64,000 nt of DNA from Quillaja saponaria. Its lineage: Eukaryota > Streptophyta > Magnoliopsida > Fabales > Quillajaceae. The notes below the pieces were generated by a model. It made no database searches. It was not told where the DNA came from and saw only the letters and a program-made list of their open reading frames with translations. A program made the position numbers and the translations under genes. Each line of letters opens with the position of its first letter. The stretch's first letter is position 1. Below, one piece after another: positions 1 through 4,321 of the stretch. The stretch covers positions 32,719,048 to 32,783,047 of the forward strand of contig CM055608.1 of the NCBI GenBank assembly GCA_029379385.1, written 5' to 3'.

Positions 1-47
1 AGAATATGAAATTAATAAAAATAATAATTGAAAATTGAAATATGAAA

Positions 48-356
48 TATGAAAAATTAGGTCAAACATTTATTTGAAAATTGAGACATGAAAGATTAGA
101 TCAAACATTTATATTTTCTTATTATAATTTAAAAAAAAAATCAATTAAATATGAAAAATTAGGTCAAACATTTATTTGAAAATTGAGACATGAAAGATTA
201 GATCAAACATTTATATTTTCTTATTATAATTTTAAAAAAAATAATCAATTAAATATGAAAAATTAGGTCAAACATTTATTTGAAAATTGAGACATGAAAG
301 ATTAGATCAAACATTTATATTTTCTTATTATAATTTTTAAAAAAAATAATCAATTG
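48..356. repeat. Three-copy ~103-bp tandem repeat
   Basis: Three head-to-tail copies begin near 48, 150 and 254, with periods of 102 and 104 bp. Each unit contains two related sub-units built around ATTAGGTCAAACATTTAT and ATTAGATCAAACATTTAT, so the array looks like an older ~50-bp duplication that was later amplified. The copies differ mainly in the length of the A-run before ATCAATTAAAT. There are no distinct spacers and no coding potential. It lies about 250 bp upstream of the CSD1 TATA box. Confidence 0.9.
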
Positions 357-609: not shown

Positions 610-616
610 TATAAAA
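610..616 (+). promoter_or_regulatory. Probable TATA box of the CSD1 gene
   Basis: TATAAAA followed by more A residues lies about 75-80 bp upstream of the 5' half of the predicted miR398 site. A start of transcription near 640 would give a first exon of roughly 60 nt ending at 703. Placement is inferred from motif and spacing only. Confidence 0.55.
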
Positions 617-900
617 AAAGAGTCCAACCCATGAGTATCGGCACTTAATTCTACACACTTACATTTTTCATTTCTGATTCTTTTTCTTTAGGGGTGCTCT
701 GAGGTCAGCTTTCTCTTCTCCCTTCCCCTGATTTGATTGTTGGTAATATGATCAATATGATCTTCTTCTTGTTTTCCTTCTGGGTTTTGTTCCTTTGATC
801 TGATTGTGCCAAAATAAATGGCGGAAGCTCTTATAGGCTTCTATTGCTTAATTATAGTTTGGTTTCTTTGTTGATCTCGGTGATCTGATTTGCATGATAC

Positions 901-933
<33 letters not shown>
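901..933. repeat. T20A13 homopolymer pair
   Basis: Twenty T residues run directly into thirteen A residues inside the CSD1 leader intron. This simple-sequence tract can fold on itself and is prone to length change. Confidence 0.9.
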
Positions 934-1092
934 CATATACTTAGATTTTTTTTATTTTTTTTTCATTCACGACAATTCACAGGTAGCGTTATTGTAGTTT
1001 CTCCAGGTGAGTTAGTGATGACTGATGACTATAACTTTTGTACCTATGATAAAGTCTTCAGCTTGATTCATAAAAAATGGATTTCAGTTCCC

Positions 1093-1093
<1 letters not shown>

Positions 1094-1127
<34 letters not shown>
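1094..1127. repeat. C34 homopolymer
   Basis: An uninterrupted run of 34 C residues lies inside the CSD1 leader intron, just after CCT. Such a long poly-C tract is rare in an AT-rich plant intron and its exact length is a likely sequencing or polymerase-slippage artefact. Confidence 0.9.
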
Positions 1128-1131
<4 letters not shown>

Positions 1132-2020
1132 TGGATGCTATAAGAGTGAGGAATAAAATGTAAAAATGAAGAGGCTAACTTTTTTTAGCTTCATCTTATC
1201 GTGCCACTTAGTTCATTTTCAGATATTAGGCTTTTTTTATTTTTGGAAAGTATGGTATGGATGCAGTAACAGGAGGAGCCGATCTATAGGCTACCTTAAT
1301 AATCAATATGCCACTTTAAGCTTATGCATTTTGGGTGTTCGAGAAACAAACATAATTTAATTTACGTCAGTTACAAAGGTGTATGTTGGAGAGCTATGTT
1401 TCCAATTCACTTTTATGACTTGTTTCTCTTATTATATTTCTTACCTTTCCTCTGAACTCTGAATAAAACCGGGAGTTGTATTAAATTTAAAGTGTCTATG
1501 AGAAAGGTTAATTTATTCTGGAATTTATTTTTTAGGATATCTACACATGGGAGGAGTGGGTTGATGGTTAATTTCTTACCCAAGTTGCAGCGTGTTGCTA
1601 GGTTATGGATCTCATTGATAGAATAGCCACAGTGTCCTGTTGGGCCATTGGAGATTTTTCTTGTTGAGGTTCTCTTTAAATACTTTCACCATTGGCTAAA
1701 GACATTGGACCTGTTTTATCTATTTTGTTATTAGGATTTGAACAATCCATTTGGTTTGTTGAGATAAATGTGCTTGAAGATAATAAGGTACTGATTTTTT
1801 ATTTTGGTTCTATGCTAGTATAACAAGAAGTGTAACTGGCGTTACTCTAATTTTGATATATCTGGATCAATTTCATAATACCAATTTGATGATTGAAATC
1901 TTTTAAGAGTTCTTTTGGTCTATTTTAATTTTTACCTTCTTTCTGATTTTCATGGAACTCGTGTGTAAGTTGTCTTGTGTAAAAATCTAAATAGCTGTTT
2001 TGTCCAGATCACACACAACA

Positions 2021-4321
2021 ATGGTGAAGGGTGTTGCAGTTCTTAGCAGCAGTGCAGGTGTCGCAGGAACTATCTTCTTCAATCAGGAAGGAAATGGTAA
2101 GCTCAAATTCCATCCAATGTTCTTGATGTGTATATTTGTTGTTTAGCTGTTTAATTGAGGTATGTTTGCTATGAAATCTTCAGGTCCAACCACTGTAACT
2201 GGAAATCTTTCTGGCCTTAAGCCTGGGCTTCATGGCTTCCATGTACACGCCCTTGGGGACACCACAAATGGCTGCATGTCAACTGGTATTTTCAGTGACC
2301 ATACATAAAAACACCCAAACACATATAACTAGTGGTAATATTTTGAAGAGTTCGGTCAAAAGCAAAGATAAATTCATGACTTTGCTGCTCTGGTTTGTCT
2401 GGATTCTTAAAAATGTGAGGGAAAGGAAACAAGAAGGAAAATCTTGCGCAAGTTTTCTTTTTTAAGCTTTTTGTATTCTTTGCATTTTGTTGTTCTCCAA
2501 AGCCCAAACATAGGGATTGCATTTGAGAGTAACTAAGTTCCAAAATTTGAATTTCACTTCTTTAGTCCTTGATCTTTTTATTTCTTTTTTTACAGGTCCT
2601 CATTTTAATCCTGTTGGCAAAGAACATGGTGCTCCTGAGGATGAGAATCGTCATGCTGGTGATCTGGGCAACGTGAATGTTGGGGATGATGGTATGCATG
2701 TTGTTCTTCAAAGCCTCTGCTTATTTGGATCTCTTTGCTGTTGGTTTTTCTTTTTTATATTATTAGTATATTACTCCAAATAGTGTATATTGTTACTTAT
2801 AATAAAAAAAATTAGTGTATATGCTTTCATCTTTATTTTTATACCTAGTCCTTAACTTATTTCTATCTGTTTGTATGGTTCAGGAACTGTTTCCTTCACT
2901 ATCATTGACAATCAGGTTTGTAAACATCTTCTATGTTGCTTGTCTTGTTATTTATCAGTTGCATTTATATATAATGGTCCTACCATGTCAATGTCCGGTT
3001 TCTGAGTTGCTAACATGTTTGCAGATTCCTCTCACTGGACCAAATTCCATTATTGGAAGGGCTGTTGTGGTCCATGGAGATCCTGATGATCTTGGGAAAG
3101 GTAACCATTAATCTATTTCTGCATTGTTGCATGGATGACCATAGATGAGTAGGCTAAGCGATTATTGACTCAAGCTGTCTCACACTAGTAAGAGCATCAT
3201 GCACTTCTTCTATCTATGAAGGAAAAGGAAATGCTTTTAGGATTTTGTTCTGGGGTGGTGCTCTTGAAGTTGGAGCCCTAAAGCCGGCGTATTTATAGTT
3301 TGATGTCAATTGTCATGGGTCAATAGTTGTATGGGAAAGATAAGCAAGCCACAGGCTTCTTTTGGGAAGGGAAGCAAATCAATGCTCACATCCATCATAA
3401 AGCTGCTCTTATTTTGATATTCAAATGGATTTATTTTATTCATGAATGGATATTTTAAATTTTATTTTATTTTGCCTTTGAGAATTTTTAGGTGTTTACT
3501 GCTGCAACCTGCTGATCTCTAATTTTTTTGATTTCCACATTGGTTTCGACCATTTTGTCAATAAAGTCATAAACTAGCCCAGTCTTGGCATCTTGAGGGG
3601 ATTGACTCGGTTTTTGTTTCTACCACTCGCATCTTTGGTCTTCATACTTTGATTATCTTTGCAATGACTGGCATAAGCGGATCTTTTTTGTTTCAATTGA
3701 AGCCCCCAAGTCCCTCTTTACAAATATCACTTGATGTTTTCTGCAGATCTCCAATTTTTTGATTTCCACATGGGTTTCGACCTTATTGTATTAAGTCATA
3801 AACTAGCCCAGTCTTGGGATCTTGAAGGGATTGACTCGGTTTTTGTTTCTACCACTCGCATCTTTGGTCTTCATACTTTGATTATCTTTGCAATGACTGG
3901 CATAAGTGGATCTTTTTTGTTTCAATTGAAGCCCCCAAGTCCCTCTTCACAAATATCACTTGATGTTTTCAGCTGCAATTAATCCAATGTCAACTTTTCT
4001 TTTTTCCTCTAGGCGGACATGAGCTAAGCAAAACCACTGGAAATGCTGGTGGCAGAGTAGCTTGTGGTAAGTATAAATGGCCAAGGCACCATATCAAATT
4101 TCCTTCTTTGTAGTTAGTTTTTGAAAGTTGTGGCCATTTTGAGGGTATCATATATGTTTGGGGATGACTGTGTCCAAGCCCCAGTTCCATTCATGTCCGA
4201 AGTGTTCCTATCATGGACTCGTGATTATGATTTTTCATCTCATGTCATTCCACTTTTGTTTGCTACTTTGATGTTCTCATGTCCTCGCCATTTTGTAGGT
4301 ATTATCGGCTTGCAAGGATGA
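2021..4321 (+). CDS. CSD1: Cytosolic Cu/Zn superoxide dismutase, complete, 152 aa
   Basis: The enzyme converts superoxide to oxygen and hydrogen peroxide in the cytosol. Coding exons: 2021-2096, 2184-2285, 2596-2691, 2884-2915, 3025-3100, 4013-4066 and 4299-4321. Their 459 nt encode 152 residues plus stop. The protein begins [10 protein letters not shown] and has no transit peptide, which marks the cytosolic rather than the plastid form. Metal ligands are visible in GFHVHALGD, in GPHFNP and the following acidic zinc loop with NRHAGDLGN, and in [10 protein letters not shown]. The disulphide pair is Cys in NGCMSTG and Cys in RVACGIIGL, and the active-site Arg lies in GGRVACG. All splice sites are GT-AG. 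Expression is probably post-transcriptionally controlled by miR398 (leader site). The next gene converges on it from the other strand. Confidence 0.97.
3512..3976. repeat. 232-bp tandem duplication in CSD1 intron 5
   Basis: Two nearly identical copies lie head to tail, with homologous positions at 3514 and 3746 (period 232 bp). Both contain ACTCGGTTTTTGTTTCTACC and the same TTGAAGCCCCCAAGTCCCTC stretch, differing by scattered substitutions and small indels. The duplication lies wholly in the intron between exons 5 and 6 and leaves the splice sites intact. Confidence 0.93.

What the first reader, a model, noticed from the sequence alone, without database searches (positions are those of the whole stretch)
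689..2013. miR398 target site of CSD1 appears to exist only after splicing of a 1.3-kb leader intron
Before splicing, the 3' part of the site is GTCAGC and pairing with the miR398 5' region is poor. Joining 703 to 2008 supplies ATCACA and yields a 21-nt site with three mismatches and one G:U pair, fully paired around the cleavage position. The site would therefore be present in mature mRNA but absent from pre-mRNA and DNA, and sensitive to splice-site choice. Genome-based target scans would miss or under-score it. I cannot tell whether the same junction arrangement is already described in other species.
Basis: partly seen in the sequence, partly recalled or inferred. Interest (0 to 1): 0.75.

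Follow-up and report, generated by a model that had tools for sequence, protein, structure and literature searches.

The report
miR398 site split by CSD1 intron
In this plant the landing site for the small RNA miR398 on the messenger of a copper/zinc superoxide dismutase gene is cut in two by an intron and is put together only by splicing; a second copy of the gene in the same genome has the same layout, so it looks real, but it belongs to a well-known regulatory pair.

Summary
Exon 1 of a cytosolic Cu/Zn superoxide dismutase gene (CSD1, 152 aa) ends GAG at 703 and exon 2 starts ATCACA at 2008. Joined they give TAGGGGTGCTCTGAGATCACA: 3.5 penalty points against each of the three miR398 forms found in this genome, versus 6.0 unspliced. 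Of 2603 GT-AG joins tried, only 703/2008 reaches 3.5; 0 of 20,000 shuffled miR398s do so at this junction. The best support is an intact paralogue (138/152 aa identical) elsewhere in the same genome whose intron divides the site at the same base: CAGGGGTGTTCTGAG|ATCACA.

The biology is the textbook miR398-CSD1 5'UTR module. Loss of the site by alternative splicing is reported in peanut and soybean (PMC9502370, PMC7201782; passages read). I found no text saying that the leader intron splits the site, but key papers were not held. Expression, junction use and cleavage are untested here, and no cleavage of the cytosolic form was found in longan or Hevea. Extra observations: the donor is weak (GTCAGC; the paralogue and two captured copies have GTAAGC), and three MIR398 precursors carry the spliced-form sequence, two non-pairing bases included.

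The parts
610..616 (+). TATAAAA, likely TATA box of CSD1
   Evidence: sequence; inference
642..703 (+). leader exon 1; the start at about 642 is a guess, the end at 703 is the donor
   Evidence: 5' end not determined
689..703 (+). exon-1 part of the miR398 site (faces miRNA positions 21-7)
   Evidence: same in paralogue L021:5183-5197
704..2007 (+). leader intron, 1304 nt, GTCAGC...GTCCAG; 27 ATGs inside
2008..2013 (+). exon-2 part of the miR398 site (faces miRNA positions 6-1)
2008..4321 (+). CSD1 coding region, exons 2-8 with introns; ATG at 2021, stop ending 4321
   Evidence: (152 aa), Pfam Sod_Cu, PDB sequence match 2q2l_A
983..1006 (+). candidate 24-nt cassette exon without ATG; inclusion would leave a 6.0-point site; prediction only
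   Evidence: splice matrix recalled

Best explanation
This is a functional-looking cytosolic CSD1 gene whose 5'UTR miR398 site is built by splicing: the leader intron sits between the bases that face miR398 positions 7 and 6. Mature mRNA carries the full site and would be sliced by AGO1-miR398 between the bases facing positions 10 and 11, which lie in the exon-1 part, lowering CSD1 when copper is short. Transcripts that keep the intron, use another donor or acceptor, or include an extra exon would lose most of the pairing at positions 1-6 and escape. Shown from sequence: the split site, its reconstitution, its repetition in a paralogue, the host's MIR398 hairpins, an intact protein. Inferred: junction use, slicing, copper response, escape by alternative splicing.
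For: Joined 3.5 versus 6.0 unspliced against all three host miR398 forms. Unique among 2603 joins; 0 of 20,000 shuffles at the junction. Paralogue on C3 (L021): CAGGGGTGTTCTGAG|GTAAGC ... TTTTGTCTAG|ATCACA, joined 3.0-3.5, unspliced 6.5-7.0, 911-nt intron, protein intact and 138/152 identical. The two differences between the paralogues' sites fall at positions 21 and 13; position 13 is unpaired in both, 21 is an end position. Five miR398-containing loci fold as hairpins; four of the five were tested against shuffles, z -7.3, -8.1, -4.2, -5.1. Maize SOD-4A's listed target CGGGGGUCGCCUGAGAUCACA has the same GAGAUCACA (PMC4510349, table passage). Rice OsCSD1 has a 5'UTR site with 3 or 3.5 mismatches (PMC8068833, passages). 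Soybean GmCSD1a/b were confirmed as targets by 5' RACE, and 5'UTR variants lacking the site exist (PMC7201782, abstract and passages).
Against: No RNA evidence was available. By a splice matrix recalled from memory this junction has the weakest donor (5.95) and weakest acceptor (5.77) of the gene's 7 introns; the donor ranks 6 of 76 and the acceptor 10 of 68 in the region. The site has a mismatch at position 5, within the region where plant sites usually need pairing. In two other trees the cytosolic target failed: longan DlCSD1a was predicted but no cleavage was found (PMC3623967, passages), and Hevea cytosolic CuZnSOD was neither predicted nor cleaved (PMC3821574, passages).
Confidence: 0.88

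Rival explanations
1. The joined site exists in mRNA but is not cut to any useful extent in this species; it is a conserved relic or acts weakly, for example only by translational repression.
For: Mismatch at 5 and weak pairing at 12-13; no cleavage of the cytosolic form in longan or Hevea.
Against: Pairing is kept in two paralogues whose differences avoid paired interior positions; 5' RACE confirmed soybean GmCSD1a/b (PMC7201782).
Confidence: 0.08
2. The leader is not normally joined 703 to 2008: another donor (best scoring: 1006) or a downstream start is used, and the full site is a rare or absent product.
For: CAG|GTGAGT at 1006 scores far higher (10.29) than 703 (5.95); the window's donor has C at +3.
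Against: The only join of 2603 that makes the site is this one and the paralogue has the same split with a consensus-like donor GTAAGC.
Confidence: 0.04
3. Splicing hardly matters because miR398 also acts on the unspliced 6.0-point sequence.
For: Position 689 remains the best + strand match in the window, and a miR398 site with a 6-nt bulge in the 5' region works in Arabidopsis BCBP (PMC4005643, passages).
Against: Unspliced pairing loses positions 1 and 2, has a mismatch at 5 and G:U at 6; intron-retaining RNA is usually nuclear (general knowledge).
Confidence: 0.03

Closest known systems
miR398-CSD1 module (5'UTR site)
   Same: same gene, same 5'UTR location (PMC9502370, PMC4005643, passages), same GAGAUCACA as the maize SOD-4A target (PMC4510349); host MIR398 present
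   Different: here the site is shown to be divided by the leader intron in two paralogues; cleavage not tested here
CSD1 splice forms without the miR398 site (peanut AhCSD1-2.2, Park and Grabau 2017, seen only through PMC9502370; soybean GmCSD1a-1 and GmCSD1b-1, PMC7201782)
   Same: splicing decides whether CSD1 mRNA has a miR398 site
   Different: those are reported isoforms; here only candidate alternative sites are predicted, and I could not read whether the legume site is split at the same base
miR165/166 site of PHABULOSA/PHAVOLUTA spanning an exon junction (Bao, Lye and Barton 2004; recalled, nothing of it seen)
   Same: a plant miRNA site that exists only after splicing
   Different: coding region, other miRNA; there linked to methylation of the gene (recalled)

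Membership tests
miR398 target CSD1 | encodes a cytosolic Cu/Zn superoxide dismutase | tested here: met
   152 aa, Sod_Cu E 1.4e-50; PDB match 2q2l_A over residues 1-152; no N-terminal extension; location itself not tested
miR398 target CSD1 | miR398 site in the 5'UTR within usual plant scoring limits | tested here: met
   3.5 raw, 5.0 with double weight at positions 2-12, for each host form; weights recalled
miR398 target CSD1 | host genome encodes miR398 | tested here: met
   five loci, hairpins; expression not tested
miR398 target CSD1 | cleavage opposite positions 10-11 | not testable with these tools
   no degradome or RACE data
Splice-junction-spanning miRNA site | site complete only after joining two exons | tested here: met
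   3.0-3.5 joined; 5.5-6.0 and 10.0-11.5 on the two unspliced sides; same layout in paralogue
Splice-junction-spanning miRNA site | junction used in RNA | not testable with these tools
   no transcript data for this genome
Alternative-splicing escape from miR398 | an isoform without the site is expressed | not testable with these tools
   candidate splice sites only

The most novel reading that the evidence does not exclude
The MIR398 precursors of the GCCCCUG type descend from a spliced CSD1 leader (or the intron entered CSD1 after MIR398 was born). Their 5p arms read CAGGGGCATCCTGAGATCACA (L006) and CAGGTGCGTCCTGAGATCACG (L004, L005), unbroken across what is an intron in CSD1, and share with the C3 CSD1 site the same non-pairing T at positions 5 and 13; one change on the mature arm at position 5 would explain its mismatch with both star and target. 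If so, the intron position helps to date the birth of an ancient miRNA.
Probability: 0.1. Interest if true: 0.6.

Novelty: new member of a known kind. Interest (0 to 1): 0.33.

Why it matters
A site that only splicing completes couples two layers of control: slicing is confined to correctly spliced mRNA, and any shift of the leader splice sites would free CSD1 from miR398 without changing the protein. Reporter constructs and edits must therefore keep the intron or use cDNA. Since legume CSD1 is reported to lose the site by splicing, the layout offers a simple structural cause for it that can be tested across plants.

Tried and rejected
Rfam on the window: 0 matches at gathering score. Contiguous miR398 site: nothing better than 5.5 in the window on either strand with the three forms tried; in the paralogue locus L021 none at 5.5 or less on the + strand and one unrelated 5.5 on the - strand. 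A recursive (zero-length exon) splice point at 1006/1007 was considered; YAG|GTRAGT occurs once on the + strand and never on the - strand of the window, but in a 1.3-kb intron without RNA data it stays a curiosity. Homology of the MIR398 5p arms with the CSD1 leader beyond the 21 bases was not evident by eye. The chance figure for sharing both mismatches (890 of 200,000) is after the fact, assumes a one-half chance per base, and the three precursors are not independent, so it is not a test; loci L007 and L008 lack the position-5 T in their 5p arms. The candidate exon 983-1006 is not kept in the copies L002 and L003 (by eye). A first splice model of the paralogue's coding exons was off by one at two exons and was corrected. 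Searches for a statement that the CSD1 site spans a junction gave no paper that says so in the listings or in the passages I read, and most listed papers were not opened; one search was too loose to mean much. Searches for the PHABULOSA precedent: one search listed 7 papers, two of them looked into without result; one search listed none. Papers not held. Passages of PMC9191229, PMC12869259, PMC8389029, PMC5902779, PMC11755482, PMC4299684 and PMC4924269 said nothing on the junction; nor did those of PMC4005643 and PMC5751366, cited on other points. Of the 10 papers listed for the core sequence I looked into 4: maize was a CSD-type target, longan and blueberry were miR398 5p strands, for Hevea the passage was not shown. 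L022-L026 were only scanned for sites, and the single-exon loci L009-L020 were not read.

Full report
What was checked. The window is from a 351.8-Mb assembly in 213 contigs, place C4:32719048-32783047. The gene at about 610-4321 codes for a 152-residue Cu/Zn superoxide dismutase without N-terminal extension. Exon 1 ends at 703 (GAG|GTCAGC), exon 2 begins at 2008 (TTTTGTCCAG|ATCACA), and the start codon is at 2021.

The site. The genome itself has five places with the miR398 sequence at up to one mismatch: three GCCCCTG forms (L004, L005, L006), one ACCCCTC form on the minus strand (L007) and one form with GGCCACCCCTT (L008, one mismatch). All five fold with the mature strand paired on the 3' arm. 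Four of the five were compared with 200 shuffles each: z -7.27 (L004), -8.14 (L006), -4.20 (L008), -5.11 (L007), with 0, 0, 0 and 1 shuffles folding as well. With each of these three host sequences the joined site scores 3.5 and the unspliced one 6.0.

Chance. Of 2603 GT-AG joins built from 76 GT and 68 AG positions in about 640-2060, one gives 3.5 (703/2008); the next best give 5.0. With the letters of miR398 shuffled, 0 of 20,000 reach 3.5 on the junction (best 5.0, once) and 1 of 4,000 does on the 693-nt model mRNA.

The paralogue. A second CSD1 lies at C3:35886121 onward (L021). It is intact, 138 of 152 residues identical, and its 911-nt leader intron divides the site at the same base: CAGGGGTGTTCTGAG|ATCACA, 3.0-3.5 joined, 6.5-7.0 unspliced. 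ATCACA is identical and 1 of the last 10 intron bases differs. By contrast three other genes with superoxide dismutase-like matches have miR398-like sites that are unbroken in the DNA: L023 and L024 (GCGGGTGACCTGGGAAACATA, found by pattern; an ungapped scan at 5.5 points did not reach them; I recall the same letters for Arabidopsis CSD2) and L025 (GGTGGGTGACCTGGGAACATT, 3.5 points). Calling them CSD2-like and perhaps CCS is my reading, not a test. L022 and L026 showed no site at 5.5 points or less.

Splice signals. By a matrix recalled from memory this junction has the weakest donor and acceptor of the gene's seven introns (5.95 and 5.77; others 6.80-9.41 and 7.37-15.25), and there are stronger signals inside the intron, above all CAG|GTGAGT at 1006 (10.29). 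The paralogue and two captured copies of the leader (L002, L003) have GTAAGC where the window has GTCAGC, so the C at +3 looks derived. This makes alternative use plausible; nothing here shows it. An included 983-1006 exon would add no ATG and leave a 6.0-point site; a retained intron would add 27 ATGs.

What is known. Passages read state that CSD1 carries its miR398 site in the 5'UTR (PMC9502370, PMC4005643), that peanut AhCSD1-2.2 loses it by alternative splicing (PMC9502370, citing Park and Grabau 2017, not held), and that soybean GmCSD1a-1 and GmCSD1b-1 5'UTR forms lack it (PMC7201782; the same paper also concludes that miR398c control of drought tolerance was not affected by this splicing, and did not detect these forms by 5' RACE). 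Maize SOD-4A's listed target has the same GAGAUCACA (PMC4510349). Against generality, no cleavage of the cytosolic form was found in longan (PMC3623967) or Hevea (PMC3821574). Blueberry mature miR398 forms agree with those used here (PMC5751366). That a plant miRNA site can be made by splicing is recalled for PHABULOSA and miR165/166; I could not read it here. I found no text that says the CSD1 site is split by the leader intron (searches), but the library lacks the main papers, so this is not a claim of priority.

A further reading. The 5p arms of L004-L006 resemble the spliced CSD1 site, not the genomic one, with the same unpaired T at positions 5 and 13 as the C3 gene; the window's own site shares position 5 only. 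This may be descent from a spliced transcript, or shared constraint on duplex shape; L007 and L008 do not show it. I give it one chance in ten.

Verdict. The observation and most of the interpretation are right. It is a new, well-supported example of a known regulatory pair, with a structural detail that would explain why splicing can switch it off.

Noticed in passing
L002:1501-1870 (C4:22015752 on) and L003:1501-1865 (C2:7903279 on), matching window 673-1174: Two copies of the CSD1 leader-exon end plus the 5' part of intron 1 sit in other contexts and are 79% identical to each other over 530 columns that begin upstream of the captured part; in L002 a downstream frame codes for a BED zinc finger (E 1.7e-9), as in hAT-type transposases, which suggests capture of the leader by a mobile element or its domesticated relative.
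   Followed up: partly
window 1090-1127: Run of C (38 columns, 94% match) inside the leader intron; unusually long, possibly an assembly artefact.
   Followed up: no
window 45-355: Three tandem copies of a 104-base AT-rich unit upstream of the CSD1 promoter, 98% match.
   Followed up: no
window 3509-3970: A 229-base tandem duplication (94% match) inside the sixth intron of CSD1 (3101-4012).
   Followed up: no
window 1004-1012: CAGGTGAGT, where one AG|GT scores as the best acceptor and the best donor of the region, the form of a recursive splice point; the only YAG|GTRAGT on either strand of the window.
   Followed up: partly
L004, L005, L006, 5p arms within 1400-1500: MIR398 star strands carry GAGATCAC, the CSD1 spliced-junction sequence, with non-pairing T at positions 5 and 13; UGAGAUCACA is also listed for blueberry and longan 5p strands (PMC5751366, PMC3623967).
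   Followed up: partly
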